From Amaranthus tricolor (lineage: Eukaryota > Streptophyta > Magnoliopsida > Caryophyllales > Amaranthaceae): a stretch of DNA of 64,000 nt. Both the position numbers and the translations under genes were made by a program. The DNA is taken from NCBI RefSeq assembly GCF_026212465.1, contig NC_080057.1, forward strand, positions 25,787,647 to 25,851,646. The letters are read 5' to 3'. Under the pieces are notes generated by a model. That model saw only the letters and a list, made by a program, of their open reading frames with translations, was not told where the DNA came from and did no database searches. Position 1 is the first letter of the stretch; every line of letters begins with the position of its first letter. Shown piece by piece: positions 10,793-60,820 of the stretch.

Positions 10793-10847
<55 letters not shown>

Positions 10848-25269: not shown

Positions 25270-26071
25270 TTTCCATCCCTTTTAATTTGTATCACTTTTC
25301 ATTTTATTTTGTCTCACTGATTTTCTTTTTTTTTTTTGGATTGGTTTTACTCTCCTTTTAATTTCATTTACAAACATATACAATTATATCATTTCTTCAT
25401 CTTAACCATTTATTTCTATCATCTAATAATTTTAAATCTCATTTATCAACTCAATTTTTATTTTCATTAAATTTCACTTATTTTTAACTTGTGCAAATTG
25501 AGAAGAATAAAGAGAATATAAAATTATAAATTTAATATAATTTGAATAATAATAAAAGTTGGAATAAGTCTCTTTCTTAAAATGAATGACATAAAATGAT
25601 TATATAATCTTTTGTTCTTGTTTTATATTTTTGCTGAAATGCCATGACCTTGTTACGCATGATTTACGTTCAGCTCGGCTCTGCCGTTCGAGTTATATGA
25701 TTAAATATTCTATGATTTGTATATTGTGTAACATATAATATATTCCCTCCGTTCTCTTTTATCTTTCACTTTGGGTTTTTCACACATATTAAGGAAGATA
25801 GAATCTTTGGGTTGTAGTGGGTATTATTTTAATTAAATAGTAGTGTGAAGTAATGATTGTATTGGAAGTATGAGGTTGTAGTGGGTATTATTTTAATTAA
25901 ATAGTAGTGTGAAATAATGATTGTATTGAAAGTATGAGAGAGAAAATAATTATAAATAAAAGAAAATTGGTACATTAAAAGAAAATGGGGGGTTTAAGGG
26001 GTAAAAGTGGGATAAAAACTTTCTAAAAATAGAAAGTATTCTAAAGTGGAAGAACTTTTGAAACTACCCGT

Positions 26072-26076
26072 TATAG
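26072..26076. other. Left target-site duplication of the copia element (TATAG)
   Basis: TATAG here and at 30819-30823. Five bases is the standard duplication for Ty1/copia integrases. Confidence 0.9.
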
Positions 26077-26358
26077 TGTTAAAATAATCTAGAAAAATCT
26101 AGGATTTTAATTAAATATAAAAATATCTAAACTAAAGAATTAAAAAATAATAATATCTAAGATAATATAACGGAAGATCCTAGAAAAGTAATTAAAAAAA
26201 TAAAAATATCTAAGATATTTTAGTAAACTTGCACTATAAATACCCATTGATGTAATCAATTTTTTGTGCAATGAAGAACAATATTCATTCTACATATTCA
26301 CTCATCTTCCTTTCCAAATAAATCCATTCACTATTTTACCATCTAAATTTTTCCTACA
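26077..26358 (+). repeat. 5' LTR of the copia element
   Basis: 282 bp. TATAAATA at 26235-26242 is a probable promoter TATA box, placing transcription start roughly 30 bp downstream within the LTR. Confidence 0.93.
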
Positions 26359-26360
26359 TT

Positions 26361-26373
26361 TGGTATTAAGAGC
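26361..26373 (+). other. Primer-binding site of the copia element
   Basis: TGGTATTAAGAGC begins two bases after the LTR end. The common copia site is TGGTATCAGAGC, so this is one substitution plus one insertion away. Confidence 0.7.
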
Positions 26374-26459
26374 TAATTAAAACCAAGACCTCCAAACAAC
26401 CTAAACACATTAACCAACATACCCCACAATAAAATAAACCTCTAACCACAAAATAAAAA

Positions 26460-29400
26460 ATGACCTCAACCACTAATTACCCCCAAGTTAATTGGGTTCC
26501 CACATTTAAGGGAGAAAAATATGAACAATGGGCTATGCAAATGAGGTCAATATTTATCTCCCAAGATTTATGGGAATTAGTACAAGAAGGTTACGAGCAA
26601 CCACCCAAAGATGACACTAAAGAGTCATCTTGGGATGAAACAAAAATAAAACAATATAAACAAAATAGGATAAGGGATAACTATGCCCTATCTCTATTAT
26701 ATCGTGGAGTCGACGAGGCAATACTTACAACGATCATGTCTGCAAAAACAGCTACGGAGGCTTGGAGGATCCTGGAGACAAAATACAGAGGTTCCGAAGA
26801 GGTAATTCTTTTTAAACTCCAATCACTATGGAGAGAATTTGATAATCTATTAATGGCAGAAAATGAAACAATACATTCATTTTTTGACCGAGCCACTAAT
26901 ATAGTTTATCAAATAAGATCAAATGGTGGTAAAATAGAAGATGAAAATGTGATTCGAAAAATATTAAGGAGTCTTTCACAAAAATATAACATTATTGCCA
27001 CAACAATAGAAGAAGTTAACAAGAAAAATTTATCTCAATTAAGTATGCCCGAATTAATGGGATCACTACTTGCACATGAAGATAGATTAAAAAGATTTAA
27101 CGAAGAACCACTAGAACAAGCATTTCAAGCTAAATTAAAATTTTCTAATGGTGAAAATAAAAATAGTCATTGTAAAAATTATGAAAAAGGACAAACATCA
27201 ACTAATTGTAGCAAGGGGAGAGGAAATTTTAAAAATCAAAGGAGTCGATTAAATAATCAAACTGACCTTTATTGTAAATTATGTAAGAAAACTAACCACA
27301 ATACTAATGATTGTCGGTACAAATGTAAGAGGTGTAAAAAACACTCTCACCTCGAAAAAGATTGTTGGTATCGACAAAAAGAAGCAAACTATTCCGAAAA
27401 TAATAATTCCGGAGAACAAATATTTTACACTGGATTAAATGCACAAGAAAAAGTAAGTGACATATGGTATATTGATAGTGGTTGTTCAAACCACATGACC
27501 GACAATAAAAATTATTTTGTCACTCTTGACGAAAATGTTAAAACACACATCACACTTGGCGAGGGTAAAAAAGAAGATGTCGCCAGAAAAGGAACAATTG
27601 CCGTTAAAACAAAAAATGGATCATCAAAATTAATTCATGAAGTTTTTTATGTTCCCGGACTTGCACAAAATTTATTAAGTGTAGGCCAATTAATTAAAAA
27701 AGGATATATGGTTAAATTTGAGAATAACAAATGTCAAATCTATGATAAAAATAAGGGTCAGATAATAACAACTGTTGAAATGGCTCCTAACAAAATATTC
27801 CCATTAAAATTGCCATTTGAAGAAAAATTGGCTTTAAGCTCAATAAATGATGAATCCACCTTATGGCATTTGAGATTCGGGCATCTAAATTTTAACAGTC
27901 TAAAACTATTAAAACAAAAAGAAATGGTAATTGGACTACCATCAATAAAAAATGAAAGAAAAATTTGTGAAGGCTGTATATATGGCAAGATGCACAGATT
28001 GCCATTTCCTACTGCACCTTGGAGGGCCAAGGCTCCTCTAGAGCTTGTTCATGCAGATATCTGGGGTCCTACCAAGAATCCGTCTCTTGGCGGAAAACGA
28101 TATTTTCTTCTGTTCGTAGATGACTACTCCCGCATAATGTGGGTATATTTCCTGGAGAAAAAATCAGAAGCTTTTTCCCACTTCATGGAATTCAAAGCCC
28201 TCACAGAAAATCAAAGTGGGCATTCTCTTAAGATTCTTAGAACAGATCGTGGCGGAGAATTTACAAGCAACGAATTAAACAACTTCTGTAAGAAGCATGA
28301 GATTAAAAGAGAACTTACAGCAAGGCGTACACCACAACAAAATGGTGTCGCGGAAAGGAAAAACCGCACTATAGCAGAGATGGCCCGCAGCATGATGCAG
28401 GGTAAACATCTACCCAAAGGATACTGGGCCGAAGCTGTTCACACGGCAGTATATATCCTCAATAGATCTCCCACAAAAGCAGTTAGGGATTTAACGTCAT
28501 ATGAAGCCTAGCACAAGAGAAAGCCAAGAGTAGAATACCTCAAAGTGTTCGGATGCGTAGCTTATGCCCACATCCCAAAGGAGAATCGGGAAAAGCTCGA
28601 CGAGAAGGGAGAAAAATGCATATTCATTGGATACAGTCACGAAACAAAAGGATATCGCCTTTACAAGCCTGAATCTAAACAATTAATCATCTCTAGAGAC
28701 GTAATTTTCGACGAAGCAGCCGAATGGACGTGGAAAGAAAAAGAAACTGAAGCTCGCGAAGGAGATACTCTCCTAAGAGATCCAAGTGAAGAAGACGGAG
28801 CAGACCAACCAACAAACCCATCATCTCCGAGTCCAAGTACACCTGAAAGTACAAGATCATTCCCAAGCTCAAGAAGCCAAACATCACGTTCAACTCCTCA
28901 ACCTCAAGAAGCCCGAAGATCAACACGAGATCGGCAACCGCCATCATGGTTACAAGATTACCATTGTGACCAAGCAATGATGGCTCTCTTCTCTAGTGAG
29001 CCACAAACATTTCAAGAAGCAGCACAAGAAGAAACCTGGATTGAGGCTATGAACAAAGAAATGAAAATGATCGAGAAGAATCACACATGGAAACTTGTAG
29101 ACAAACCACAAGACAAGGAAGTCATCGGACTCAAGTGGGTCTACAAGGTGAAACATAATGATGATGGCTCCATCAACAAGTACAAAGCAAGGCTCGTAGC
29201 AAAGGGATATGCGCAACAACCAGGAATCGACTTCAACGAAACATATGCACCAGTTGTCCGCATGGAGACAATCAGAACAGTCCTGGCATTAGCAGCACAG
29301 CATCAGCTACCAGTCTTTCAACTCGATGTCAAATCAGCATTTCTAAATGGAGAACTTGAAGAAGAAGTGTACGTCGAGCAACCGCAGGGATACGTCATCA

Positions 29401-30530
29401 AAGGCCAAGAAGACAAAGTATACCGCCTTCGAAAAGCTCTGTACGGACTCAAACAAGCACCCCGAGCGTGGAACAGCAACATCGACAATTATCTTCTCCA
29501 GCATGGTTTCATCAAGAGTCCAAGTGAACCTTCACTATACATCAAGACACAAGGTAACAACTTTCTCATTTTATGCTTGTATGTGGATGATCTAATCTTT
29601 ACAGGCACACACCCAACGATGATCGAAGAATTTAAAAAGGCTATGATGAAGGAGTACGAGATAACAGACCTTAGTACAATGAAATACTTCCTTGGCATAC
29701 AAATCAAACAAAGCCCAGGAAGAATATTTCTATCACAAGAGAAATATGCAGAAGACCTTCTCAAGAAAATCAACATGGGTGAATGTAAACCGCTGGCTAC
29801 ACCAATGGCAATCAACGAGAAGTTATCAAAGTACGATGGCAAACCAAAAGTCGACGGAGCAATGTATCGAAGCTTGGTCGGCTCTCTTATTTATCTCACA
29901 CATACAAGACCAGATATAGTCAACGCTGTCAGCATCGTATCCAGGTTCATGAGTGAACCGAGCAAGGATCATCTAACAGCAGCAAAGAGGATTCTCAGAT
30001 ACATTAAGGGAACAAAAAGCTATGGGATCATGTACGAAACTGAAAAAGATTTCAAGCTCACAGGATACACCGATAGCGACTGGGCTGGAAGCGTGGATGA
30101 TAGAAAAAGTACAAGCGGGTACGTATTTCAGCTTGGAAACAAGGTGGTCTCATGGTCATCAAAAAAACAGGCGACAGTAGCTTTATCATCAGCAGAAGCA
30201 GAGTACATTGCAGCAATAAGTGCAGCACGTGAAGCAGTCTGGCTGAGAAGGATATTAATCGATCTACAACATAAGCAAGAGACACCAACAACAATGTTCT
30301 GCGACAACATGTCAACAATAGCAATGACGAAGAATCCAGTGTTTCATAGTAGATCAAAACACATCGAGATACGACATCACTACATTCGTGAGTTAGTAGA
30401 CAAGAAAGAGATCGAACTACAATTCTGCAAGACGGGGGAGCAGCTCGCAGACATTTTCACAAAACCCATATCAACTGATAAATTTATCGAGTTCAGACCA
30501 CAATTTAGAATTCAAGATTTTTCAGATTAG
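26460..30530 (+). pseudogene. gag-pol: copia gag-pol polyprotein with one internal stop
   Basis: Single frame of 1356 codons including an in-frame TAG at 28509-28511 (codon 684), between integrase and reverse transcriptase; both sides stay in the same frame. The upstream part has the gag domain, two CCHC zinc knuckles (from Cys272 and about 288, CKLCKKTNHNTNDC and CKRCKKHSHLEKDC), protease motif DSG (339-341, then CSNHM), the pre-integrase LWHLRFGH and the integrase core with RTDRGGEF and TPQQNGVAERKN. Downstream are reverse transcriptase (LDVKSAFLNG, YVDDL at 1041-1045), RNase H (TDSDWAGS from 1204) and ADIFTKP near the C-terminus. The stop falls where family members usually have Trp, consistent with a single G-to-A change. 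The element could still be mobilised in trans. Confidence 0.93.
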
Positions 30531-30536
30531 GGGGAG
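30529..30536 (+). other. Polypurine tract
   Basis: AGGGGGAG directly abuts the right LTR and overlaps no coding sequence; it is the expected plus-strand primer of reverse transcription. Confidence 0.85.
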
Positions 30537-30818
30537 TGTTAAAATAATCTAGAAAAATCTAGGATTTTAATTAAATATAAAAATATCTAAACTAAAGAAT
30601 TAAAAAATAAAAATATCTAAGATAATATAATGGAAGATCCTAGAAAAGTAATTAAAAAAATAAAAATATTTAAGATATTTTAGTAAACTTGCACTATAAA
30701 TACCCACTGATGTAATCAATTTTTTGTGCAATGAAGAACAATATTCATTCTACATATTCACTCATTTTCCTCTCCAAATAAATCCATTCACTATTTTACC
30801 ATCTAAATTTTTCCTACA
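30537..30818 (+). repeat. 3' LTR of the copia element
   Basis: 282 bp, same length as the left LTR and about 98% identical by eye. Followed by TATAG at 30819-30823. Confidence 0.93.
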
Positions 30819-30857
30819 TATAGTAATGTGGAAGATCAAAAAAGAACGGAGGGAGTA

Positions 30858-33062: not shown

Positions 33063-36000
33063 TTAAAGTTCATTATGGTGAGCTTTTCTTGAGAATTTTT
33101 TGCAAGTGCAAAGCTCCATACATGTCTCCGATAACATTAAACTTGTAATCCAAACTTCGTCACTAGGGTTTCCATAATCAGAGTCATCTTCGGTCCTATA
33201 CCATGCAAAATGAGCCTTTTTGTCGTCATATATTCTCAAACGTCCGTGTCCAAATGATAGTTCTCTATGCAATGAGGTTGAAAGAGCGTTTTGCTCAAAC
33301 CTGTAAATCACAATGTTATGTGATTAATAAATGTCGGTAACAAATTCTTTGTTAGTGTTATAAACTAACAAAGATATATGAGGTTGTGCACATCAGACTT
33401 TCAAACTACATCTGGGTTATATTAATATATTTTGAAATTTTTACTTACTCGAAGGTGGGTTTGAAGCCTGCATCCCCTAGAGTTATGTAGATTGGTGCAC
33501 AAGGGTCAGGGTTATTGTCATATGTCCTTGCCTGTTGCCACAAAAAACTAATAATGTCATCTCAACAATTACATTAATAAAATATGCGCTTATCCATCAA
33601 ATGATGCTTTCTCAAACGAACAAAGAGAGAATAACTTACGAATCGTTCATAAGCACCAACACGAGAGGCAAAAACAACATCAACTCTAGCCATATATAGA
33701 AGCTTTTCCATGGCTTTCCTCATAGATTCACCTTCACCTTTGTAAGCAACATTAGAAGTATACCAAGGAGTATTAACCACGACGATAACCCAAGGGGTCT
33801 TAACCCTATCGATGCTAGCCAAATCGGCCTTAAGCCACTCGTATTGATCAGAGCTACAATCGAAGTCAGCATACGAGCCTAAACTTATAAAATGTGCACC
33901 CGCGACATCATACGAGTAGTAAAGGTTAGATATTGAGCCACTTTCATGATAAGGCATGAGCCATCTAGCATTAAAAGCCTTAAAAGGTTGAGGTCCTTTA
34001 GGAAGTGTACAAACACCCTCAATTTCATATTTCCCAGCAGTGACCATCCATGGTCTTTTGCTAGCATATGGCTCGATTAGTCGCCCAAATGAGTCCCACA
34101 ATGATTGGTGGCCGTCTGCGTATGATAGCCCTCCAACTACTATTAGTGTGTCATAGCATTTTTCATTGATGCGAGCTAGTGTTGCTTTGGTCCATTGTGT
34201 TTGTCCAAGTCCACCTGTTTAAGATTAGATCATTAGAATTGTTACAAGGATAGATGCATAATGTAATAACGGTAGTTTAGCAAAATAGCTTATTAGAATA
34301 TTCTAGCTTTATTTAGATATAGATAGAAGGTTAAGTGGTCAAACTATCTAATATTAGTGTTTGGTAAATTAGCCGGTTAAAACAATTTATTGTTATGAAT
34401 TAGTTGTTTTTGAATAAGTTGCTTAAAGCAGCGGGTTTAAAATCAGCTGGTCAAACCAATCAATAAAATCAGCTAGTCAAATTAATTATTTTAATCAACT
34501 AAAAACTGTTAGCTATTTGCCAAACACAGGAGAATATTTAGTCACTCAAAATTCATCTAATGCGAGTAGTTTTGACTTTTTGCCCTTAAATAAGCCCAAA
34601 AAATAAAGAGATAAAAGGGTTGGCTAACAATAGTCATTATTCTTGGCTCATTTCACAAAATTTTTCCGTGTTTGATATGACTTTTTGGCTAATTTATTGA
34701 TTTATTTTTAGCTTGTAATTTTTGGCGTATTATCAGTCAAACAAACAAATAAATGATTTTTAGCTAATAGAATTATTATTTGTATTTTAAGTCCTGAAAA
34801 TAAACACAACCTTTCTTTTGAGAGACCGTCTATTTGAGAGACGTTTTGTCAAGCTTAGCCCATTAAAGCTATATTAAATTTACCAAATTAGTGATGTCTC
34901 TCAAAGAAACCGTCTCTCACAAGAATGTGTGAAATAAAAATTTATTATGGGCAACTAGTTACATTGATTTTAGGCTTGTTATTAAACAACTTTTCTCTAA
35001 TAAATATTTATTACTAATGACTAATTTTTCCACACATCTCAATTATCTATTGACATATACATCTAGCATACAACATTCGCAACTTTATTAGCTGATCAAA
35101 TAAGCTAACTGAACTAGCTAACAATAAACAACTAATTGTAAAAACCCACAAAAGACGGAGAATAATAATAATAAAGTATATAAATATCAGCTAGTTAAGT
35201 AGGTAAAGTCGGGATATATGTAATGTAAGTATAAAAACTTACCAACAAAGACAAATTCAGCAGAGAAGGAAGCAGGAGGAGTACGAAAAGAGAATTCTTG
35301 AGAAGCACCACCAACGCGATAGTAATAAGTAGTACTAGGTGTTAATGGACCCACCGTAACATAATGGATTTTACCAGAAATATATGAATAGTAATGGTAG
35401 CTAAAATTATCACCAAGTACATATTCATTGTAGCTTCCTGATTTTGTTCCATACTCCACTACTGATGTTGCCATTTTGTATGTTGTTATCCATGATATTC
35501 TCATGTACCCATCTCCAGCTAATGATATATGTACCTGCACACACATATTTATGGTCATATTATTGGACTTGTACATAACAATATAATACCGACACATATT
35601 ATAGAAGAGTTGATTGCACACAAATCTAACAAGGTCACTTCCCGAAACCAATTGGTAATAGGAGTAAACCATCAAACTTATATATTAGTCGATCTCATAC
35701 TCAATTCAAGTGAAATATTTTGTATCAGGTCGTCATCATCATCATACCCAGTGTATCCCGTTCATAGAAAACTATAGTCAGGGTCTGGGGAGGGAAGACA
35801 GACGGCAGCTCATAACCATAGAGGAGAGTGCGGTCTAAGAATCCCTCGGCTCGAGAAAGGTCTTTAAAGAGAGAGAAACCTGCAACTTACAAATAGATTA
35901 AGTAGAATACATAGAAATAACTAAAAATAAAAATAAAGTAAAGAAGGAGGTAAAGAGCGATAATTAAAGGCAATGAACAAAAACAAACGATGGGTAAAAG

Positions 36001-39000
36001 AGGCGGGTTTAGTAATTTAAAACATGGAAAAGGCGTCGCCAACTGCCCCTATCCCTGGTCAGGTCCTTGGAGAAGTGAAGTTCATACATGTCATTTTTAA
36101 TATGTTCCTCCCACTTTTAGCATAATAAGTTTTCATGTAAATAGGGCAGGCCCGAAGATTTTAGAGGCCCGGATAATTTAGCCCTTCGAACTTATACTCG
36201 TATAAACCCTTAATTTCTAAAAGCGTTGCTTTTCTAACTTTTTGAATTGGGTCAGGGCACAGGCCCCTCTTACCTCTTATAGGGTCGGCCCTGCATGTGA
36301 TAAAATGTGTTAAAAGTATTATTATATACTCCATAAGTCCATATATCTATGTATAAATAACCATCACTTTAAATTTTTATTGAGTTTCTCTCTTGATACT
36401 TAATTAACTTGGTATTCTTGACTCTTGAGCAAGGACAAATTACAATAAACCTATTCTTATTTGATTCTACTTAAGGTAATTCAAAGTCATCATCTATTAC
36501 TATTTTTAACCTTAAATATATTACTATATACTCTATTTAAATATAATTATCAATTAGTAACAAAGTTTGTTTAGAAAATTTTTGTGGGTTACCAATTTAA
36601 TATAAAATTAAATAATTTTAAAAATAAGAGCATGAGTAAGAATTATAAATTATAAATAATACAAAAATATCTAAATTTCTTTTAATTTGAATTCTTTGGC
36701 TTTTCTTTTTGTCTATTCTCGACATTATCCTACTTTGCCGATTTTGAGCCATCATTCATGAGTCATGTTCCGGATGGCTAAGGGCAAAAAGATACTTCTA
36801 TATTAACTGCCAAGTTGAGCCTAACCAATATGCTATGAAAACTTCCTTTTATGGGAATAGTTGTACTTCTTGTAGTCCCATGTGAAGAGTTTAAAGATCA
36901 TTATCATACAAATATCATACAAATATCATTAGGTGGAAGTATTAGATGATAAGTCGGCAGTCACTAAATTAATTGGTAAAAATTATTAGAAAAATTAAGC
37001 GTCAATAAGTCAAAATTCAACGAAAAAATTATCATTTGTATCCTTTTAATTTTGGCTAAAAGATTGGCTAGCTAAAACTCCAAAAGCTAAATACTAGTCA
37101 ACCAAAAAGCCAAGAAAAAAATAATTTGTCAAACACTCTTAATCCTAACAATATAAATAGACTATATTACCAAAAATAACCTGTCATTTAAAATAATCGT
37201 TAATAGTGTCAAAACCTCAATCTTAACCTTTTCTCTTGATCCTTAATAACCATAAACCAAATAAGTCACTATTTTACACATGATATATTTTTCCGTCCAT
37301 TTTTAACTAGGGCTATTAATAATCTATAATGAAGCTAATTGGTAGGATAAATATATTCTATATTATTAATTATGTTAGCTAATGTGAAACAAAAATTACT
37401 ACTAAAAGATAAATATCAAAAAAAATATATCAAATAGATTATTAAATTAATTAGAAGAAAAAGAGAACGAAAATCAAAATTATATTCATACAAAAAAATA
37501 ATATATATTTCAACGATTCACTTCAATTTAAATGCTTAGATAGTTAGATTTAGAGTTTGGTATTGGCTTGATGACAAAAAGGACAATGCATAAACCCTTT
37601 TTTATTGGCAGTGGGCCCATGGGCCTTATACAGTCTTGACCAGCTGGCAATTATTTGACCTTTTAGTGGTAGTCTTCATTACCATTAGTACTATTACAGA
37701 GATTCCATCTCCCTCATTAATTTATTTTTTAAAAAAAGGCCCTTTCACATGTTTAAGGTTTTCATAAAACAATTTTTTTTTCCTCGACCTATCCTATAAT
37801 CTAAAACATTTTTTCTCGAACTCAAATAGTTTTGATTAGTATCTAATATATTTTAATTGACTTTTTATTTTGAGATACAGTAGAAATTTCTAATAGTAAA
37901 GGCAAAATAGAATTAATCTTCTATGTAGATGGTGAGAATTAAACCTTTATTATAAAGAAAAAAAAAATACTTTAACTACTAAACTAACATATAATTTGTG
38001 AATATAATTGTATGTAATTTAGCAAAAGCTTTTCTATTATAACGTGGGTCCAACACTTATTTATGTAAGTATAATAAATCAATGGTTGCTAATTTATTGT
38101 TTTATGCTATGCTACACAATTCAATGTTATTAGAATTATATCAATTGACAAATTTATACAAATAATAATCTTAAGGCTATAAAAATAATTTTTCTAAATT
38201 ATAAAATTATCTTTTGATTATAAATTAAGATCTTTTTGATATTTGAGATTCTTAAATTAGCCTAATAATTAAAAGTTTTTCTTTTAATTTTATAATAAAA
38301 ATTCAATTTTCATCACCTATATAAACTATAAATTTGATTTTCCTCAGCTTGGTTATAGAAATTTTCTAGCCTAATTAACGCAATTTTTTTTTTGATAATT
38401 TATATGAATAATTAGTCAATGACCAAAAGTCCATTTCAAATGGCATTAATGATTTCAAGTTCATACCTTTAAATAAAGTATATTTTATTGCACTAATGCT
38501 ACTTGATGAACTAATTGTTTAATGCTTATAGTTTTAGTCCATCATACTTACAATCTAGTGGTACTTTTCATTATTGTCCACTATTTATAGTAGGCAAAAG
38601 ATCGGTGCCTTTTTTAACTTTTTACAAAAATTATTATCAATACACAAATTGAAATATTTCATTACTTTTTGAAATAAAATGAAATTTTGAATATATAATT
38701 TTAAGGAGCTTATTTGGAGGCATTAGCTGTATTGCGTTATGTTTAGATTTATCCAACAAACAAACTATTACTTCCTTCCCATATTTGTCGTCACACATAT
38801 TATTTACTTAGATTGATTGACATTCATTTGTTTTGCTACATCAATAATTAATGATAAACCAATTTTAATTTTTTGACATTAAAAATCTAAAATTGTTATT
38901 GTTTTTAAACTATAGATGATGAATTGACGTGTTTGCTAATATGACTGTTTAAAATACATTATTATTTACCTGTAATTAATCTATTATCAAATAATCTGTT

Positions 39001-40231
39001 TCTATGATATTTAAAGAGTTGAACATATGAGCCTTATCCTTGTCATAATGATCTTGTTCCCCAAGATCCACAAGAAAAAAATAAAAAATAAAAAATTTCA
39101 TATTTAAAAAATAATGTAACATAAAAACAATGACAAAAGTAATGGCGACCACGATCAAACTACATTATTGCACAAAAAAATCAATAAGATCATTCAATCT
39201 TTCTAAAACAAAATAAAAAAAGACATCATGATATGTCGAAATGATATATTCATAAAATTAATTTTAGTGTATACACTATATAAGTTTTTGGAGCCTTTCT
39301 ATTTTAGAGTATATCTCATTGGTCTTATAAAGTATGTGCAAATAACTTTATGTAGTGTTTGGGAATAAGTATTTCATTTTAAATTATGGATTTCAATTAT
39401 GAAATCATAAATGAAGAATTTAAGAATGACAAGGTTTGGATAGTTATTTTCAAATTCTCAACTTTAACTACTTTAAAAATAATGGTAGAATTTGATTCAA
39501 ATTCAAATTTGAAAATTTTTAATTTACCAAACAATAAATTTGAGACATTCCAAATTTCTAAATAAAATCATAGTTCCCAAACATGACATTAATTAATTCA
39601 TTGATATGAGACAAATCATCCGATCCCAGCATAACAATTCAGAATTCAAATACTATGTATTGATTAGGAGTATATAATTGATCACCTTGAGTTGATATTA
39701 GCAGTAATAACAATAAATACCATGCATACATTTCAAATCAACAATGTTATTTCAATCTTAAAAATCTAAGATTTACATCATCATATCTCACTCACATTTT
39801 ATGGGAAGTGTTTTTCTAAAAATGGTTCTTATTTAAAATAAAAAAATATTTTATTAATTAACAATGTATGATTAAACATAGAAGAATTTAGGATGTTAAT
39901 ATAAAGTGAATCGAATACTTATCTACATGTGTATTGAATAACTTCGACTGTCATTTTTTATATGTTGCGCAATTTAATATAGATATATTAATAGACTTGT
40001 AAATCAATTAATTGGGATTTCGGGATTATTGCCTAAGCAGACTCAAATCTAAATCCTCTGCTATGATAGAAAAAAAGAGAGGAGGAGAAAGATGAAAACC
40101 TGTTGGGGAAGAGAATCACAGGTGGACTGTTTAGGATGAGAAAGACTTCCATTAGATGCAATTACTTGCTGTAGTAATAACAGCAATTGTGGGAGAACTA
40201 ACAAAACAACAAAACAACCAGATTTACTCAT
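33063..40231 (-). CDS. Purple acid phosphatase-like protein, active site lost (PAP-a)
   Basis: Secreted metallophosphatase family (AtPAP20-22-like size and exon plan). Minus-strand exons 40100-40231, 35243-35534, 33640-34214, 33449-33531 and 33063-33300 join in frame with GT-AG borders: 439 residues. Residues 1-26 form a signal peptide; exon 2 is the PAP N-terminal fibronectin-like domain (VHISLAGDGYMRISWIT); the C-terminal RELSFGHGRL block is present. The catalytic motifs are altered: GDxG is GGLG (143), GDxxY is GGLSY (170; Tyr173 kept), GNHE is GKYE (203-204), VxxHAPW is VVVNTPW (289) and GHVH is SRVG (326, 328). Six of seven metal ligands are therefore gone, while the fold-forming sequence and frame are kept. 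I infer a non-enzymatic protein or a gene just beginning to decay. Intron 1 is 4.6 kb. An alternative in-frame Met lies upstream, but 40231 fits the signal peptide best. Confidence 0.85.
34820..34918. mobile_element. Foldback MITE, GAGACC family copy A
   Basis: In PAP-a intron 2. Ends GAGAGACCGTCTATTTGAG and, in reverse complement, GAGAGACGGTTTCTTTGAG, with a short core containing CCCATTAAAGCT. It matches copies at 40412, 44220 and 57399. Confidence 0.65.
36142..36293. mobile_element. hAT-type MITE
   Basis: Left end TAGGGCAGGCCCG, right end in reverse complement CAGGGCCGACCCTA; flanks CATGTAAA and CATGTGAT resemble a diverged 8-bp duplication. Related to the MITEs at 13675 and 25106. Confidence 0.5.
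39351..39588. mobile_element. MITE-like inverted-repeat element
   Basis: TGTAGTGTTTGGGAATAAG on the left pairs with TAGTTCCCAAACATGACA on the right (imperfect terminal inverted repeat of about 18 bp). The interior is AT-rich. No target duplication was confirmed. Confidence 0.45.
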
Positions 40232-46546: not shown

Positions 46547-49500
46547 TCAAAATTCATCGTGGGAAAATTTTGAGCCGTTTGATGAACATGAGGAGGTCGT
46601 ACTTAAGTTTTCTAGCCATACTTCATCGGCAAATGTTGTGGCATTTGAGTCTTTGTTACGGTGCCATGACCAATGAGCTTTTTTACCATCAACCAATCTC
46701 AACCGTCCATGTCCAAAACTCGGCTCTCTATACATTGAAATCGATGGAGCTGGATCTTCGAACCTTCAATCAAATTAGTGAATATATTTTATTTAGGATA
46801 GTAGATAAAAAATAAATGAAGAAGAACGGAAAATAATTGCTCCTCACAAAATAAAGTCATTTATTTCTTCATGTATTCTACAACAAGAATGATCTCTCGT
46901 ATTAATGTATTTTGATTCATATAGCTGAACCTATATTCTTCAGATTAAGAATTTGACTTTTTTATCAAGTAAGCGAGGAAGATTTTATCCACTTATATTA
47001 AAATATCTTTAGAAAATAAAAATTAAATTTGAATCAATTCGGATATATTATTTTTATTTAGCAATATTTTTAATCAATTACAATTATGAATTAAATTGAG
47101 AAAAGACATTGTTAATTAACATACATATTAGTGAACATAATTAAGAAAATAAACAAGATAAATGCATGCATAAGAATACTTACATCAAAGCAAGACCTTC
47201 TCTATTCCCTCCATCACCAATGGTAATGTAAAGAGGTCCACATGGATCAACTTGATTATTATAAACTCTTGTCTGGCATTTAAAAAAAAAAAAAAAAAGT
47301 TATAGCTAAGTTTCATGAGATTTATGGATATGTATTAAATGAAAAATTATTCAAAAATAAATCAACATTTACTTTATCCACTAAAAATAAACTTACATAT
47401 ATTGTTTATATTAAAAAAACTCACGTATTGTTTGTAATTATTTTCAAAGTTTCATTATTGTAAGTCTATAAATTAAGAGTAAACCAAAGTTTGGTATATA
47501 TTTTCTGCAATTATACCGAATAATTGAGTTTATCTAAAAAAAATAATTTTGAGTTTATTTTCAACCAATCAAGTAAAAGTTGCTTTATATATAAGTGAAC
47601 TTACAAATCGCTCATATGCATGAACATGACCAGCAAATACCACATCAACTCTAGCGTTATACAACATATCTTCCATTGCGCGTCTCATACTTTCCCCTTC
47701 GCCCTTGTGAGCAGTATTCGAGTTATACCATGGTGCATGTAACAACACTATGATCCAAGGAGTCTTTGACCTATCGATTTTTGCCAAATCATTTTGAAGC
47801 CATGTATACTGAGCTGAATCAACATCATGGTCAGTGTAGGACCCAAGCATTATGATGTGGGCCCCATACACATCAAATGAGTAATAGAGGTTTGAAGTTG
47901 ACCCACTTTCCTCATAGGGCATGCCCCATCTTGCATTGTATGCCCTAAAAGAGTCACTAACAAAGGGAAGGAACTCAACCTCATGGTTACCTTGTGTAAC
48001 CATCCATGGTCTTCGGCTTGCATATGGCTCAACTAAACGACCAAAACTATCCCAAAGTGGTTGTTGGGTATCCGCATAAGAAAGGTCTCCGGGTAGTAGG
48101 AATACATCATAATTTCTTTGTCCAACATGCTCTAAGGTTGATTTAGTCCATTCTGTTTGGCCTAAATCCCCTATTTACATTAAAAAAAAGTTTAAATTTC
48201 AATTAAAAATTGGTATAATTTTATAAATAGATACTTTGACAATCTAAAATCACAAAAAAGTTCATCACAATGATAATTTATCGATTTTTTATAGGCCATA
48301 TCGACGAAATTTAGATTTTAGTCTTCCTTTGTAATCATTTTTACAAACAACTCATCAATCTACATCATTAGCGATAGATTGATTCAACATAAATATTTTA
48401 GAAAAAGTTTACAATTAAAAGGAAATGACTTTTGGTTAACTTTTAGCTTTTAAATTTTTAATTAGTCATTTCAGTCAAAAAAGTGAGGGTAAATGATATT
48501 TTAAGTCTAACATATGAGTAACAGTTTCATTAGTCGTTGATTTATTTTCTCTAATAAATAACACACAATGAACAACTAGTTTTTATCAAACATTTTAATA
48601 ACAAACTTAAATGCTGGCAAAATAGCCAATATTACATACCAGTCAAACAAGCTAATTGAACCAATTATCAATTAATAACCAAAATCTAATTGCCAAATAC
48701 TATTTCTTATTAGTCATTTTGGTTTCAAATTGTTCATATTGGGTTAGCTGTTTAGATATGTTTTAGCTAATAATCTAGTAGAAAGTTTCATATACTGTTA
48801 TATGAGACAATCTTACAGCGAGACTACCATATACATGAGCTAAATAACCCAACTTATATAGATTATTAAAATATAAATTTTTTTTAGATCATCTTATTAT
48901 GATACAGTGTGTGAGAAAGTTTTGGTGATAAACAAAGAAAGCCTACAATTTTCATAGTGGGCCGATACGTTCACAATTGGTCGGGCCTCAAGAGAATAGA
49001 CAACAACTTTTGGGCTTTTACTACTTAACTTCATCTTAAAGACAATAATAACACGTAAAAGTATTTATTGTTGTCCCAAGCTTACCAAATACAAAAGCTA
49101 AGCTTTAACGAATTTGCTAACGTACATACGAAATACGAATCATTAACGTATGAACTTCACCAAAGACCTACGTCTATACACGCGCTGGATAATCTTCCTA
49201 CGGTCGGACCACCCTAGATTTTTTGGGTTATTTTATACTTCATCCTATTCATTTTAAGTGTCTCATTTCTTATTTGGTTAACAGGTTAAATCATCTTAAA
49301 TGTCTTATTTTAATTTTAATTATGTTAATTTTATTAATTTACCCTTACTAAATCTAACTTTTTCACACTTTTACACATACTACACTTTATCCTATTAAAA
49401 TTTAAAAACACTATAATTTTTTCTTTCATATGTGGTTTCATTTGACCTCCTAAAAAATAGAAAAATTCAAATGCGACACATTGTGTGAATATGAGTGAGT

Positions 49501-51996
49501 AATATTTAAATATTTTCTAACTGCTTCAGTAAAAATATGTGATTCAGTAGTTAAGCGTAATAACAAAAGAGGTTAAAAAGTCTATATCTTAGCCCACCTA
49601 ATTTTAAGAATAATTTGCGAATTTTAACCATAAAGTTTACGACTTTTACGAATTACAACCTCAATATTTATTTTTTGTGAATTACAGCAATCAAAGTATA
49701 AGAGTCTAGAACATACAGATCACATCATAGAATTACAACTACTTAATCTAAAATGCGACCGCTAAAATGGACGGAATCATAAAATTGGTTTAATCGCTGT
49801 AGACTTTAATACTTTAATAGTTGTAATTTGCAAAACATAAATATTAAATCTAATAATCGCAAAATTTCTTAACTTTTAAGACTATAATTTATTTTCTATT
49901 TGAATAAAAATTTTAACTATATCTTAAGATCCAAACTCTAATAACCTAACATTCTTCAAAAGCTTTTTTTGACATGAAAATAAACACGTAACGTGCCGTC
50001 TCCACAACTAAATTCATTTTAATTTTTATGGAGTAGACGAAATCAAAAATTTATTATGCTTTAAGCTTTAACTCCAAATTGGTGGTTCAGCTTGTATTCT
50101 AAGTAACGACCCTAATACATAAAATAACAATAACAAAAAAATTTGGATTAGATCACGTGGTTTAAAAGGTCCCTTACTTTTTAATTTTTATTTAGTATAT
50201 CTTGGCCAAGATTCAAATCATATGATTAAAATCTTATATTATATAACACGTAAAAATTGTGGTTGAATCAATTTAATATACATATAGAAATAAGTATTCG
50301 ACCCATCTTACTCCATTACATAAGATGCACATACATTTTTCTCTATCGATAACTCCTCTTATTCTGGTAGCACATTAAGATTGGTGCATACTATTTTATT
50401 ATGCACTTAACAAGAGTTAGATCTCCTAGATGAAAACGGCAGAAGTAATGATGTTAAAGAATGTGTTGAAAAATAACCCACATGTAATCTCACATCGAAA
50501 AATTAGAGAGATGTTGACTAACATATAAACTTGACTACTACTCTTATTACTAATTGGTTTTAGGATGAAACCTCGTCAAATTTATTTGCAGCCAATTTTA
50601 CATTTATGCAGATTTTATTATGTATAAGTTCAATAATAAATTTACCAGTAAAGTGTGAAATTTAAAAAGTAAAAGCAAAAAATTAATAAATGACTTACCA
50701 ACAATGGCAAATTCAATTGGAAAAGAAGGAGGAGGTGTTCTCAAGGAAAATTGAGGGCCTTTGTTGCTACATCGATAATAATACGTAGTGTTTGGCTTCA
50801 AAGGTCCTATCACAACATTATGTATTCGTCCCGAACTATACATAAAATAATGGTACGTCTTGTGATCACCTTTTGCAAATGTATCATACTCTCCTGAATT
50901 TGTCCCATACTCTACTATTGAGGGTGCCATTCCTTGGGTAATCCATGTTATTCTCATTTGATCCTTTCCCACTAAGGATACATGTACCTATATTATAACC
51001 AATGTAATCATGCATCTTAAATAAGAAATGGGTAATAAATGATCATTTTAAGTTGGGTCAAGTCACATCATCATTGATTGTAGAGTATATAGTTCAATCT
51101 CGGCTCAATCAAAAGTTTAACCATAATATGTTTGAAGTGACTATAGATTATATTATATATACTGTATCATGACACCTCTTCACGCATGTGAGCTGAAATT
51201 GTAAATGTAACACATACGCTCTTTACATTTGTTACAAAATTTCACTAACTCAAAGGAGGTGGATTAGGTTTGAATCTGTGATATTATGTTACTTTGACTT
51301 CTAATTTCATGATGCCAAAAAACCAACTACTACAAATTGAAAATTTTGGGCATCAAAAAATATGAGTTTTGAGCAACACTAAAAACATACAGATTTATCA
51401 TATATGTCCGTCTTTTTTCTCTTCTCTCCTCCCCTTTCCTCTCCTTCTTGCTCGTCACTAAATTTGGCGAAAATTTTAGATTTTTATTTTTGTCGTCTAT
51501 ACTATTAACTATATTTGTAGGGTAAATATATACCAAACTAAAATTGAAGTACGTAATTAAATATAGCCTTTAAATATTTAAATGCTCTATCAAAATTAAT
51601 ATATGTTTGAGGCTCTAAGCCGCTAACTATGACTCCGACTATATTAGACTTGCATTAAGTTTTATAATCGCTAAGTAATAAGTTTAAATTTTTAATTTAT
51701 TTTAAAAATTTAAATTTATTATTAGAACCATACAATATATTTTATATACCAACTTATTATCTATATAGGATCAAGCTATTTATGATCAACACTCTTATTC
51801 AAACAAGAAAAGGGTGTGATACCTGTTGAGGATCAGAAGCGGAACGGTTGTGCGGCGTGACAATGACACTCCGAGCCGGTGGCCGGACAAAATCGACGGA
51901 GGATGAAGCACGTGATTGAGAAGGAAATGTAGTGAAAATCAAAGAGTTGATGAGGAATATCATGAGTAAATTTGCACAAGTCTTGGGTTTTGCCAT
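46547..51996 (-). CDS. Purple acid phosphatase, active-site motifs intact (PAP-b)
   Basis: Secreted binuclear Fe-metal acid phosphatase, hydrolysing phosphate monoesters in wall or vacuole. Minus-strand exons 51823-51996, 50699-50987, 47605-48170, 47184-47272 and 46547-46763, all GT-AG, give 444 residues. Residues 1-43 include a hydrophobic signal segment (LLMIFLINSLIFTTF). The N-terminal domain starts VHVSLVGKDQMRITWIT. All metal ligands are present: Asp156 (GDLGQT), Asp183 and Tyr186 (GDLSY), Asn216 (GNHE), His299 (LLHAPWYNSN), His336 and His338 (GHVH). The C-terminal REPSFGHGRL block is followed by a Ser-rich tail. Exon phases equal those of PAP-a and PAP-c, so the three are local paralogues. 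Closest known group: AtPAP20-22 type. Confidence 0.93.
49238..49499. mobile_element. Stowaway-like MITE in PAP-b intron 2
   Basis: TA-flanked. The left end TTCATCCTATTCATTTTAAG and right end TGTGTGAATATGAGTGAG pair imperfectly over about 25 bp including GTGTCTCATTT against AAATGCGACAC. Confidence 0.5.
49605..49910. mobile_element. Foldback-like repeat in PAP-b intron 2
   Basis: Arms contain ATTTGCGAATTTTAACCATA and, inverted, TTTAATAGTTGTAATTTGC-like sequence. It resembles the element filling PAP-c intron 2 (59461-59690). Borders are approximate. Confidence 0.4.
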
Positions 51997-55600: not shown

Positions 55601-58600
55601 ATGATGCATTATAGTAGAAAAATAGTATCTTTATTTATGATGGTGAATTCTAGTCTTGTGTTACTTATATTGGCTGTTATTTGGGCGGCATTTCCTGCAA
55701 AAATGGCGTTGCACCACCGTGCACCACCACTAGGATCAACCGTTCCTCAGCAGGTAACTACTAATTCTAGCTTTTCATTTTCATATTAGGAGTAGTATAA
55801 ATAATTTATTTTTGTTTTAATTCTTGGAATCGAAAGAGTAGAAGAAAATTAATTAAATAATAAAAATTTTATGTAATTTTTATCAAACTATAAAATTGAG
55901 AAATAAGAAAAAGATATATAAAAAAACATTTTCTCCAAAACAAAAAATGCCAAAATGCACCCAAAAGTTGTTTAATATATATACTTCGAAATACTTGTAC
56001 AATTATGGAGAATTACTAACCTCTAATGCCCTAGAAAAATTTCAAACATGATAAATCTTAAAATTAGTAATAGTACTTTAAAATAAACAAATCATAAATA
56101 ATTAATTTGATAAATTTATTTTAATTAATCGCAAAAAATTATTTTTTTATAATAAATTAATTCACTCAAAATAAGTGGTTTTTTTAGTACAAGTTAGGTT
56201 GAGAGGAGAGGATGGACTGACAGCGAAAATAGAACTCAGATCGTTCATAAGAAAAGTAATAAATGTTCCAATAGAGATAAAATTCGATTCTCTAAACTTA
56301 ATGATTCGAAAGTTGAAATATTTATAAATGAAGTTAATTTTAGAATGCTAAATTCTTTTTAAAATTATCATACATTCTATTAATTTTACTGTATAATAGC
56401 AAAAAAGAAGTTTGATTGTGAACATGTAATTTGTCTTTTTTTCATTGGATAGTATTAATGGAATTTGACTGATTTGTATTTTTTTACACTTGCCATATTT
56501 ACAAATGTATATTTTCAGTAAAACTCACACATTAATGGATGTCATAAATCACAATTATTCCAATTACAAGTTGTATAAAAATGCACTGTTTATTATAATG
56601 GAAATATATAATATACTATGTTGAACATTATATATTGTCTGATAAAATTCTAAAAAACTACACTGTGTAGAAATTATACTATAGAATAAATTACATTTAT
56701 TCCAATGTAATTGAAATTACACTATTTAGAAATTTATACTACAAAATTACACTTTGCATAAAATTATACAGCAATTTAGGAAATTACTTGAAGTACATAA
56801 TAGCTCTGTTTCCATCAATTGCTATTTAAAACTAAAATGACATAAAATTCAATTAATTGATCATTAAAATCAGTCATTTACATTGTTACACTACCATAAT
56901 TATAATTTTGAATTTTAAAAAAAATATAAAGTATGATTTGCAATCTAAAATTTCATTAAAATATTAATGTATTGAAAAATCCGTGCGTTGTAAGGATTTC
57001 TATCTTAGTAAAATAATATTTTTAGTTGAGCGTAGGAACATGAAATAGAAAAAATCCCTATTTTGGAATTAAGCTTATGAATAAATTAATAACAGGCTCA
57101 AAATATTAAACCTAGGAGAATATGGGAGAATCATTTCTAAGCATATGCTTTGTAGCTCACATGAGGCTTTTTGTTTAATTTAATTTAGTGCTACATTGAA
57201 TTTAATTCCTTGAAGTTAATGCCAAATGCGTATTTTTCGCCATTTGCATGTTGTAATTTGTATTATTCTTTGTCACGTAATAGTTCTTCTGTCTCACAAT
57301 TTTTGCTCAATTTTTTTAGTTTGTTCTATACGTTTTGCTCCATTGTCTTTTTCATTTTAATCATATATTTTTCATATATTTTTTTCAGTTAGTGTCATGA
57401 GAGACCGTCTTTTTGAAAGACGTCTCTCAGGTCTAATCTATTAAATCTTAATATCCGCATACTGTATTCTTAATGTCTACTTACATTATTCTTAATAACT
57501 ACTTATATTATACTTAATGTCCTTCGAAAAAGTACTTAAAATGGCTATTTACAATATTCTTAATGCCCACTGAAAAACTTTAATGCCTACTTACAATATC
57601 CTTAATGCCAACTTATAATATCTTTAATACCTACTTACAATATTCTTAATGCTAACTTACAATTTCTTTAATGTCTACTTACAACATACTTAATGTCCAC
57701 CGGTTAAATACTTAACTACTTACAATAATGTAAATGTATACTTACAATATACTTAATACATACCGAGAAACTTATTCTATAATTTTCATTTTGGACCAAT
57801 CCAATTAAAAATAGTCTCTCTAAGAGATCGTTTCTTACAAAAAATTTTAATTTTTTTTAAAATTCTTTATAAATGAATCTTTTACAGGCAGTTTTATTAT
57901 TTTTGATTTGCCAAATTTTATCTGTTTTTTGATTTGTGAAATTTTATCTGTATAGTAAATGCTAAAAGATAGAGGGGATTATTGGATATGCCAAGACATG
58001 TTCATATATAAGTATATGACATTAATTTGGCAAATTCTATTTGGAATCTTTATTGCTTATTTGAAATAAAAGATTAATTTATATTAAGTATATTACCATG
58101 ATAAGGACTAATAAAGAACAACACCAAGTGGTTTTGATGGTGTAGTTTGTACGCAAGAATCAACCATGTCATTTGCTAAAAACTCTAACATTTATGTCAT
58201 GGTGTGTGTTTGTTCAACAGATGTATTTAAGACATGGAATACATCTATAATATAATAAAAAAGAAAATCAATATTGTATTTGACTTCTAATCTTGTATAG
58301 CTAATTTAAAAGCCAATAAAAATTATTAATACTTTCACCCGAACATATAAATCAACTAAAAAAGTCAAATAGTTAATTATATAACTAGTTTAATCGGTAG
58401 TTAATGAAGTATGTTTATATATTGGTTTACTTTTCTTTATATACGGAAATATAGTTTAACTTATACTACTTACGTATAGAAATGCTAGCACTATTTTGAC
58501 TTATGGTATTATTCACACACAAGTAATTTTGATCTTATATATGAATCTGTAAACCAAAATATTGACAAGTGTTCATCTTAGGCGAGTGTTCATCTTAGGG

Positions 58601-60820
58601 AGTACTCCGTAAATGAATTTATAGGTTGATTTTTTAGCTTTTAGCTTATTTGCTGTTCAACAATCAAAAATAATTTATTCAGTAAATAACTTTTCAGTTA
58701 GCTAAAAATGGTTTTAGAGTTTAAATGAGAAAGCTACTCAAATTAGATTTTTTTTTTATTGCCTTTTGGCTTGATGGCCCTATTTTCTATAGTAAACGAC
58801 CACTAGTCAAAATTTAGTTTTACCAAACATCTCCGCAACAACTTATTTATCCAACTAACTTAAACGACAAGAAAAACAATCAACATTTTCAGACAACAAC
58901 AAACATCAAAACACCTCTCCCTTAAGTTACTTTTTTCAGAAACACAACGACATATAGAGGTGTTTAAAATAAACCTTTCAATTCGACATTTATCCAATCG
59001 ACTTTATTATGAACTTATAATTATGTAAAAATCAATAAGGAGACAAATCATTTTTAAACCAACCCAAAACAAATCCGAAATACCCAATGACCCAAATAAA
59101 CACCTGTATCTACGTGTTAACTTTGTATTCTTTATGAAATAATAGGTGCATATTTCAATGGTGGGAAATGATCGAATGAGAATATCATGGATCACTCAAG
59201 ATCCAGCTCCTTCTATAATAGAGTATGGTTTGTCATCAACAACATATGATACTACAAATAATGGAAGTTCTACAACTTATAAGTATGTCTTGTACAAATC
59301 GGGCCAAATTCATGAGGTAGTCATTGGGCCTCTTAAGCCCAATACTATTTATTACTACCGTTGTGGTGGAGATACTTCTCGTGAGTTCACTTTCAAGACT
59401 ACACCATCTCAATTGCCCATTAAATTTGCTGTCATAGGTAACACTTTTTATTGAATAATTTGCAAATTACGGTCTTAAAATTTAGGATTTTTGTAAATTA
59501 CAACTGTAGTATATTATTTTTATAAATTACAGTTACCAAAGTATTAAAGTCTACAGCGTTCAGACTAGATTAAAGTTTAAGACTTTTATGATTTGGCCCG
59601 AATGTTGTAAACTTTGATACTTTAATGGTTGTAATTCAAAAACAAAAAAATCATTTAGACTATAATTCACAAAAATCCTAAAATTATTTTGTCTATAAGT
59701 ATGAAGGTTAATAAAATTAGTGAGGAATATAGGTGATTTAGGTCAAACAAATTGGACGAATTCAACACTCGAACATATCCCACAAGCCAACTATGACATG
59801 TTGTTACTACCAGGAGACTTGTCCTATGCGGATTATTGGCAGCCGAGTTGGGACTCATTTGGTCGCCTTGTAGAACCCTTGGCTAGCCGAAGGCCTTGGA
59901 TGGTGACTCAAGGGAACCATGAGGTTGAAAAGATACCGATCGTTCATAATACACCGTTTACTTCTTACAATGCTCGATGGCACATGCCTTTCGAGGAGAG
60001 TGGTTCTCAATCTAACCTATATTACTCCTTCGATGTGGCTAGTCAAGTTCACGTCATTATGCTTGGTTCCTACACCGACTTTAGCCTAGGCTCAAGCCAG
60101 TATAGTTGGCTCGAGCGTGATCTAAAGAAGATTGATAGGGCGAAGACTCCATGGGTTGTGGTCGTATTCCATGCACCTTGGTACAATTCTAACATAGCTC
60201 ATGTAGGCGAGTTTGAATCCATCGGTATGAAACAATCCATGGAGAAATTATTGTTTGACGCAAAAGTTGATGTGATTTTTACTGGCCATGTCCATGCTTA
60301 TGAACGTTTCGTAAGTCAATATTCATCATTTTATTAATTAAAATTCATACGACATATTGATTATTGATCTAATACAAATACAAAATTCAATTTGAATTAC
60401 TGAACAGACTCGAGTATATGATGGAAAACCTAACAAGTGTGGCGCTGTACATATCACCATTGGGGACGGAGGCAATCGTGAAGGCCTAGCTACAAGGTAT
60501 ACCTTTTTATGATTTTTCAAACAAAATAGAACAAACAAAAGAAAACTGATTAGTCATTTACTTCCCATTTTTTCAAGATCTTGGGTTAACTCATATAGTA
60601 ATTCGAAATGATTTTTCGATCCAGTTTTGTCGATCCAAAACCAGAGATCTCTATATTTAGAGAAGCAAGTTTTGGGCATGGACAATTTGAAGTTGTAAAC
60701 TCAACTCATGCTCAATGGACATGGCACAAGAATGTAGATGATATATCTGTAGCAGGGGATTCAGTTTGGTTAACTACCCTTATTTCTGATCCAGATTGTA
60801 AGCCACAATACTTGGACTAG
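55601..60820 (+). CDS. Purple acid phosphatase, active-site motifs intact (PAP-c)
   Basis: Secreted acid phosphatase of the same group as PAP-b. Exons 55601-55753, 59146-59437, 59733-60310, 60408-60496 and 60625-60820 are GT-AG and in frame: 435 residues. The first exon encodes a signal peptide (SSLVLLILAVIWAAF) and ends VPQQ, as in the other PAPs. Exon 2 is the N-terminal domain (VHISMVGNDRMRISWIT). Ligands present: Asp150 (GDLGQT), Asp177 and Tyr180 (GDLSYAD), Asn210 (GNHE), His295 (FHAPWYNSN), His334 and His336 (GHVHAYERF). A small insertion (FESIGMKQ) separates the last two motifs compared with PAP-b. The C-terminus has REASFGHGQF. Intron 1 is 3.4 kb and contains foldback copy D. Confidence 0.93.
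57399..57835. mobile_element. Foldback MITE, GAGACC family copy D with 22-bp repeats
   Basis: In PAP-c intron 1. The left end GAGAGACCGTCTTTTTGAA pairs with a degraded right end. The interior holds at least five tandem 22-bp units from about 57581 (TAATGCCTACTTACAATAT core at 57581, 57603, 57625, 57647, 57669) and looser copies before and after. It is longer than copies A-C because of these repeats. Confidence 0.75.
59461..59690. mobile_element. Foldback-like repeat filling PAP-c intron 2
   Basis: AATTTAGGATTTTTGTAAAT on the left is inverted as TTCACAAAAATCCTAAAATT on the right, with inner arms AGTATTAAAGTCTACA and TTTGATACTTTAATGG. It occupies most of the 295-bp intron. A related sequence lies at 49605-49910. 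Confidence 0.55.

What the first reader, a model, noticed from the sequence alone, without database searches (positions are those of the whole stretch)
33063..40231. Purple acid phosphatase paralogue with its metal site erased but frame intact
Seen: five exons join in frame with GT-AG splice sites into a 439-residue PAP with signal peptide, N-terminal domain and C-terminal block. The motif positions read GGLG, GGLSY, GKYE, VVVNTPW and SRVG, where the two neighbours read GDLG, GDLSY, GNHE, HAPW and GHVH. Known: PAPs need Asp, Asp, Tyr, Asn and three His to hold two metals (kidney-bean PAP is the structural reference). Six of seven are changed here, only Tyr is kept, and the His of GNHE is gone too. 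Random decay would be expected to break the frame or splice sites before hitting precisely these residues, so selective loss of catalysis with retained fold (a secreted pseudoenzyme, decoy or binding protein) is a real possibility.
Basis: partly seen in the sequence, partly recalled or inferred. Interest (0 to 1): 0.87.

Follow-up and report, generated by a model that had tools for sequence, protein, structure and literature searches.

The report
Conserved metal-less plant acid phosphatase relative
An amaranth gene keeps the shape of a purple acid phosphatase but has replaced nearly every amino acid that would hold its metals, and relatives from quinoa to campion carry the same changes, so it is probably a long-kept non-enzyme with an unknown new job rather than a decaying copy.

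Summary
Five exons at 40231-33063 (minus strand; probably Amaranthus tricolor) join by GT-AG sites into a 439-residue PAP22-like protein with six of seven metal ligands replaced, plus two further active-site histidines; only Tyr stays. It is neither assembly fault nor random decay. Ten relatives share the signature (A. hypochondriacus, quinoa, Bienertia, spinach, Silene, Gypsophila, four unnamed assemblies) and form one fully supported clade; the 152 other PAP22-like rows examined keep every ligand. A long stem (0.98 changes/site) is followed by a crown as slow as the active paralogue's in the one species pair compared (path 0.34 each). No gaps occur in residues 44-401 of the 11. Of 153 columns nearly fixed in active-type relatives, 13 are lost in all 11; seven of those are ligand/His columns. 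New cysteines are fixed. 'Secreted' is probably wrong: the subfamily mostly ends in an ER-retrieval-type tetrapeptide (HDEL in six of 11; HNEL in Amaranthus). Best reading: a conserved, probably ER-lumen pseudophosphatase acting by binding. Partner or ligand unknown; expression in this species, metal content, localisation and dN/dS untested; protein databases would not show broken orthologues.

The parts
40100..40231 (-). Gene A exon 1: start codon and hydrophobic N-terminus (signal-peptide-like by eye), ends ...PQQ
   Evidence: residues 1-50 of the A. hypochondriacus protein match here at 88%
35535..40099 (-). Intron 1 (4565 bases), GT-AG
35243..35534 (-). Gene A exon 2: PAP N-terminal domain (PF16656)
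33640..34214 (-). Gene A exon 3: metallophosphatase core carrying all five altered motifs (GGLG, GGLSY, GKYE, NTPW, SRVG)
33449..33531 (-). Gene A exon 4: C-terminal block (start)
33063..33300 (-). Gene A exon 5: C-terminal block (PF14008), CxxxCxC tail of which the last two Cys are clade-specific, ends HNEL, stop
46547..51996 (-). Paralogue B, five exons, 444 aa, all ligands intact, ends HDEF; 100% identical over its length to the A. tricolor 'purple acid phosphatase 22-like' record P0067 (457 aa, longer at the N-terminus)
55601..60820 (+). Paralogue C, five exons, 435 aa, ligands intact, ends QYLD

Best explanation
Gene A encodes a PAP22-like pseudophosphatase. After a duplication, probably within Caryophyllales, one copy passed through a fast phase in which the di-metal site was dismantled, while the two-domain PAP fold, a signal-peptide-like N-terminus and (in most members) an ER-retrieval-type tail were kept and new cysteines were gained. 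It has since been held by purifying selection. It most likely works in the ER lumen without catalysis, as a binding or scaffold protein: the PAP fold presents a surface, or the emptied and rebuilt pocket (Tyr173, Asn289, Thr290, Thr294, Tyr299, Ser325, Arg326), to a partner or ligand. SHOWN: the gene model, the substitutions, their sharing by 11 members, slow protein evolution in the crown, the predicted fold. INFERRED: no metal, no catalysis, ER residence, a binding role. UNKNOWN: the partner.
Against: No transcript or protein was seen for A. tricolor. The relatives come from a protein database, which lists intact predictions only, so broken or lost orthologues are not seen; sugar beet, for one, is not among the names in the capped lists. 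No codon sequences of orthologues were available, so dN/dS across the clade is not measured; against paralogue B synonymous sites are saturated (NG86 dN 0.38, dS 1.60; 4-fold p-distance 0.66; YN00 failed). The ER tail is not uniform: HNEL in Amaranthus, KTEL in quinoa, and the spinach record is labelled partial; the Bienertia model lacks the N-terminus. The former ligand positions are not more conserved than the rest of the protein within the clade (6 of 9 invariant against 216 of 430 overall, p = 0.50), so a rebuilt pocket is not shown by conservation. The model has mean pLDDT 76.7 and weak active-site loops. Nothing identifies a partner or ligand.
Confidence: 0.7

Rival explanations
1. A regulatory subunit: the dead protein pairs with an active PAP22 sibling (known plant high-molecular-weight PAPs are dimers, recalled) and tunes its stability, location or substrate access.
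For: Active and dead paralogues lie side by side in this window and both occur in quinoa; both are predicted to share the PAP fold; PAP22-like sequences share the ER-type tail.
Against: No interaction evidence; the dimer interface was not examined; no active PAP22-like protein of Silene or Gypsophila was among the 120 listed of 3379 matches to paralogue B, a capped list.
Confidence: 0.25
2. A secreted decoy or binding protein in the apoplast.
For: Hydrophobic N-terminus; the tails HNEL (Amaranthus) and KTEL (quinoa) depart from HDEL and might be weak retrieval signals.
Against: HDEL in 6 of 11 and NDEL in 1 of 11 clade members, and [HKRN][DE]EL in 124 of 151 active-type relatives.
Confidence: 0.15
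3. The protein is still catalytic through a different or single-metal chemistry, with the replaced residues forming a new active site.
For: Tyr and the Glu of GEGE are kept, and new polar residues (Asn, Arg, Tyr, Thr) are fixed in the pocket.
Against: Both ligand Asp, the Asn and all three ligand His are gone; no PAP is recalled to work so; positions 203 and 204 vary within the clade.
Confidence: 0.06
4. A pseudogene on its way out, or an annotation or assembly artefact.
For: Loss of function motifs; 4.6-kb first intron; no transcript seen for this species; broken orthologues would not show in a protein database.
Against: Ten relatives with the same changes and intact frames; path length equal to the active pair; intact splice sites.
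Confidence: 0.02

Closest known systems
PAP22-like subfamily of plant purple acid phosphatases (Pfam PF16656 + PF00149 + PF14008)
   Same: Domain order, predicted fold, five-exon layout shared with paralogues B and C, signal-peptide-like N-terminus, ER-retrieval-like C-terminus
   Different: Six of seven ligands replaced; Metallophos domain score falls from 74.9 (B) to 28.1 bits, and 5 of the 10 relatives carry no precomputed PF00149 match; clade-specific cysteines
Red kidney bean purple acid phosphatase (1KBP, 6HWR)
   Different: The di-metal ligands of the reference enzyme are absent except Tyr
[quoted passage not shown] passages seen)
   Same: PAP homologues with imperfect metal motifs
   Different: In the passages seen the changes are to single residues or whole blocks; none describes a clade with nearly all ligands replaced one by one in an intact frame. 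The maize survey removed 11 of 46 candidates for absence of conserved residues, so such proteins may have been set aside unread elsewhere
Plasmodium GAP50
   Different: Unrelated lineage, and an earlier study cited there described it as an active acid phosphatase
VPS29, POLD2 and POLE2 (recalled, no call)
   Same: Calcineurin-like phosphoesterase folds that lost catalysis and serve as protein scaffolds
   Different: Different families, cytosolic or nuclear

Membership tests
Plant PAP fold family (homology) | PF16656, PF00149 and PF14008 in order | tested here: met
   70.9, 28.1 and 35.6 bits, each above its cut-off
Plant PAP fold family (homology) | Predicted structure matching a solved plant PAP | tested here: met
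Purple acid phosphatase (enzyme) | Seven ligands Asp, Asp, Tyr, Asn, His, His, His | tested here: not met
   Only Tyr kept
Purple acid phosphatase (enzyme) | Bound di-metal centre and phosphatase activity | not testable with these tools
   Needs purified protein
PAP22-like subfamily | Closest relatives are PAP22-like proteins | tested here: met
   The 110 listed matches outside the clade are 51-59% identical; those with a specific family number are mostly called PAP 22 or 22-like. In the tree, made of PAP22-like rows only, the clade groups with active Caryophyllales rows at 66/78
Conserved pseudoenzyme | Same catalytic losses in orthologues with intact frames | tested here: met
   11 of 11 rows; no gaps in residues 44-401
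Conserved pseudoenzyme | Purifying selection measured by dN/dS across orthologues | not testable with these tools
   No plant coding sequences other than this genome; protein path lengths used instead
ER-retained lumenal protein | Signal peptide and C-terminal K/HDEL-type tetrapeptide | tested here: inconclusive
   Hydrophobic N-terminus seen (no signal-peptide predictor was run); HDEL in 6 of 11 members, HNEL in this one

The most novel reading that the evidence does not exclude
Core Caryophyllales share an ER-lumen pseudophosphatase in which a purple acid phosphatase traded its di-metal site for a new non-hydrolytic ligand or partner site (Tyr, Asn, Thr, Thr, Tyr, Ser, Arg) and new disulphides (Cys161/Cys210 and a Cys-x3-Cys-x-Cys tail before the retrieval signal): a sensor, chaperone-like or regulatory protein of the plant ER not described so far.
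Probability: 0.3. Interest if true: 0.85.

Novelty: new variant of a known kind. Interest (0 to 1): 0.72.

Why it matters
Several database records of these proteins are named 'purple acid phosphatase 22' or '22-like' (quinoa, Silene, Bienertia), so expression or proteome hits would be read as phosphate scavenging by a protein that should not hold the metals. It offers a clean natural case of a metalloenzyme turned non-enzyme: one fast stem branch, then slow evolution, with active paralogues beside it as controls. The ER-type tail common in the subfamily also asks what PAP22-like proteins do in the ER. The seven ligand columns give a simple screen for further pseudoenzymes in annotated PAP families.

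Tried and rejected
Assembly error or pseudogene: rejected because ten relatives carry the same changes with intact frames, with the limit that a protein database shows no broken copies. An intact alternative exon 3 for gene A: the motif scan (open frames over 45 codons) found GDLG/GNHE only in B and C. A second copy with these changes in the genome: the four other strong exon-3 matches, read as L010 to L013, keep GDLG, GDLSYA and GNHE (L010 and L012 are B and C; the L011 match ends before the later motifs); weaker matches were not read. dN/dS against B and C: synonymous sites saturated and YN00 failed, so only 'NG86 dN well below dS' can be said. Phosphate-starvation element P1BS in 2 kb upstream: the scan printed none. 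Special conservation of the former ligand positions inside the clade: not found, 6 of 9 invariant, p = 0.50. Placement of the dead clade next to Caryophyllales actives: best tree, but support 66/78, neither shown nor rejected. Literature: 'purple acid phosphatase' with 'pseudoenzyme' gave 0 papers and HNEL as a retrieval signal 0. The other eight searches listed no title or abstract start about such a clade, but the lists were capped: 20 of 263, 20 of 21, 15 of 16, 12 of 318. Only open-licence papers are held, so absence is not proof. Papers opened for peptides, transcripts or family notes gave passages on PAP26, PAP29, unspecified PAP, or only a reference; two opened for ER tails spoke of an ER marker and of MINPP, not of PAP22.

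Full report
WHAT WAS CHECKED. The gene lies on the minus strand, 40231 to 33063. Its five exons (40231-40100, 35534-35243, 34214-33640, 33531-33449, 33300-33063) all have GT-AG borders and give 439 residues and a stop. The motif readings in the finding are correct. Paralogue B (51996-46547, minus) and paralogue C (55601-60820, plus) have the same five-exon layout and intact motifs. B is 100% identical over its length to a database protein of Amaranthus tricolor (P0067), so the window is most likely from that species; the genome that holds it is 519.85 Mb in 45 contigs.

THE GENE MODEL HOLDS. A. hypochondriacus has a 439-residue protein 97% identical over its full length (P0001). Used as a query, it finds each of the five exons in this genome, including the far-off first exon (88-97% per exon). 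The four other strong exon-3 matches, read as L010 to L013, keep the Asp and GNHE motifs (L011 ends before the later motifs), so no second copy with these changes was seen; weaker matches were not read.

THE CLADE. Searches with gene A and with the alignment of the clade both show ten relatives and then a sharp drop: 864 bits for the tenth, 608 for the next (120 of 1344 matches listed, 120 of 1328). Named sources are A. hypochondriacus, Chenopodium quinoa, Bienertia sinuspersici (model without the N-terminus), Gypsophila vaccaria, Silene latifolia and Spinacia oleracea (labelled partial); four have no name. Amaranthus and Bienertia are filed in Amaranthaceae and Silene in Caryophyllaceae, both in Caryophyllales. 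At the positions Asp, Asp, Tyr, Asn, His202, His286, His296, His323, His325 (kidney-bean numbers, recalled) the 11 rows read G, G, Y, K/F/I/Y, variable (His kept in 4 of 11), N, Y, R, N (G in the two Amaranthus rows). The 152 other rows examined all keep D, D, Y, N, H, H, H, H, H (163 rows = 161 database proteins plus gene A and gene C). These rows are the best matches of three searches, not the whole PAP family. Because they come from a protein database, broken orthologues would not be seen.

TARGETED LOSS. Of 417 aligned columns, 153 are at least 97% uniform in 151 active-type rows (gene C left out). In 13 of them no dead-clade row keeps the residue. Seven of the nine ligand/His columns are among the 13, against six of the other 144 (Fisher p = 1.7e-7); the two exceptions are the Tyr, kept in 11 of 11, and His202, kept in 4 of 11. 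Two of those six (Leu167, Pro168) sit just before the second Asp and one (Gly325) next to His323. The rest of the highly conserved columns were largely spared.

HISTORY AND CONSTRAINT. In the careful tree (54 rows: 53 of the 161 database proteins and gene A; gene C dropped because its end branch of 1.41 was long) the clade has support 100/100 and a stem of 0.98 changes per column, the longest inner branch in the tree once rooted on Magnolia. It groups with active Caryophyllales PAP22-like proteins at 66/78 only. Nepenthes, Dionaea, Drosera and Ancistrocladus proteins fall with the active group. After the stem, evolution is ordinary: the A. tricolor-quinoa path is 0.336 for the dead pair and 0.337 for the active pair, with identities of 80% and 79%. 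This is the only species pair that was compared. There is no gap column in residues 44-401 in any of the 11 rows. In a neutral simulation of gene A, 0.10 changes per site already brings identity to 80% with 5.3 stops on average and 0.5% of 200 runs free of stops. dN/dS between orthologues could not be measured, because no other plant coding sequence was available; against paralogue B it is dN 0.38 and dS 1.60 by NG86 with saturated synonymous sites.

GAINED FEATURES. Cysteines 161 and 210 are present in 11 of 11 clade rows and in none of 151 active-type rows; 425 and 427 in 10 of 10, and in none of 144 and 111; Cys38 in 9 of 10, and in none of 144. Around the former metal site Thr290, Thr294 and Ser325 are also fixed. 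Within the clade the former ligand positions are no more conserved than the average column (6 of 9 against 216 of 430, p = 0.50), so a rebuilt pocket is a hypothesis only.

WHERE IT ACTS. The C-termini of 124 of 151 active-type rows are [HKRN][DE]EL. In the dead clade HDEL stands in six of 11, NDEL in one, HNEL in two (both Amaranthus) and KTEL in one; the spinach record is partial. K/HDEL is the standard ER-retrieval signal (established knowledge, recalled); how well HNEL or KTEL works in plants is not known to me, and a search for HNEL found nothing. The ER lumen is therefore the likeliest site, less surely in Amaranthus and quinoa than in the others.

EXPRESSION. No transcript of A. tricolor was seen. 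Four relatives (P0002, P0008, P0009, P0010) come from source 'lgn', with longest contigs of 1505, 1773, 1470 and 1377 bases that hold proteins of 427-441 residues. Since the window gene spans 7.2 kb, these look like assembled spliced transcripts; that is an inference, as is reading 'lgn' as an assembly collection of public reads.

HOW IT PROBABLY WORKS. Without both Asp, the Asn and the three His a di-metal centre is not expected, so hydrolysis by the PAP mechanism is not expected. Dead phosphoesterase folds elsewhere serve as scaffolds (VPS29, POLD2, POLE2: recalled), and Plasmodium GAP50 shows the PAP fold used as an anchor, although an earlier study cited in PMC8949495 described it as an acid phosphatase with a broad substrate profile (passages seen). 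The best account is a non-catalytic binding protein, probably in the ER lumen. A regulatory pairing with an active PAP22 is the most testable special case.

KNOWN OR NEW. Plant PAPs with imperfect motifs are known. In maize six proteins lack one or more blocks, and 11 of 46 candidates were removed from the survey for absence of conserved residues (PMC4436580, passages). Some B. napus PAPs have absent or displaced residues (PMC11819708, passages). In ten vegetable species two clades have the Tyr changed and one lacks the first block (PMC6119273, passages). [quoted passage not shown] None of the ten searches listed a paper on a conserved PAP pseudoenzyme clade in Caryophyllales (titles and starts of abstracts seen, some lists capped, open-licence papers only). 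It is a new variant of a known kind: a conserved pseudoenzyme inside a known enzyme family.

Noticed in passing
26075-30825: A Ty1/copia-type element: two 291-base direct repeats, 97% alike, flank two same-frame ORFs (gag/integrase and reverse transcriptase) separated by a single stop codon.
   Followed up: partly
46547-51996 and related proteins: The PAP22-like subfamily mostly carries ER-retrieval-like C-termini: 124 of 151 active-type rows end in [HKRN][DE]EL, while paralogue B ends in HDEF. The searches with HDEL, KDEL and PAP22 listed no title or abstract start on this.
   Followed up: partly
55601-60820: Paralogue C keeps all ligands but sits on a very long branch (1.41) and lacks the DEL-type tail (ends QYLD); a similar gene lies at G000:C5:30182845 (L013).
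   Followed up: no
1350-2657: ORF with a partial bZIP match below the curated cut-off (24 bits against 27.6), probably the first exon of a bZIP transcription factor gene.
   Followed up: no
7433-12154: ORFs matching GDSL lipase (19.8 bits, below the cut-off of 23.6, at 7433; 28.5 bits at 11768), probably exons of one gene.
   Followed up: no
21142-21642: ORF of 166 residues with A20 and AN1 zinc fingers.
   Followed up: no
25810-25937: Two adjacent 64-base direct repeats, 97% alike, just before the copia element.
   Followed up: no
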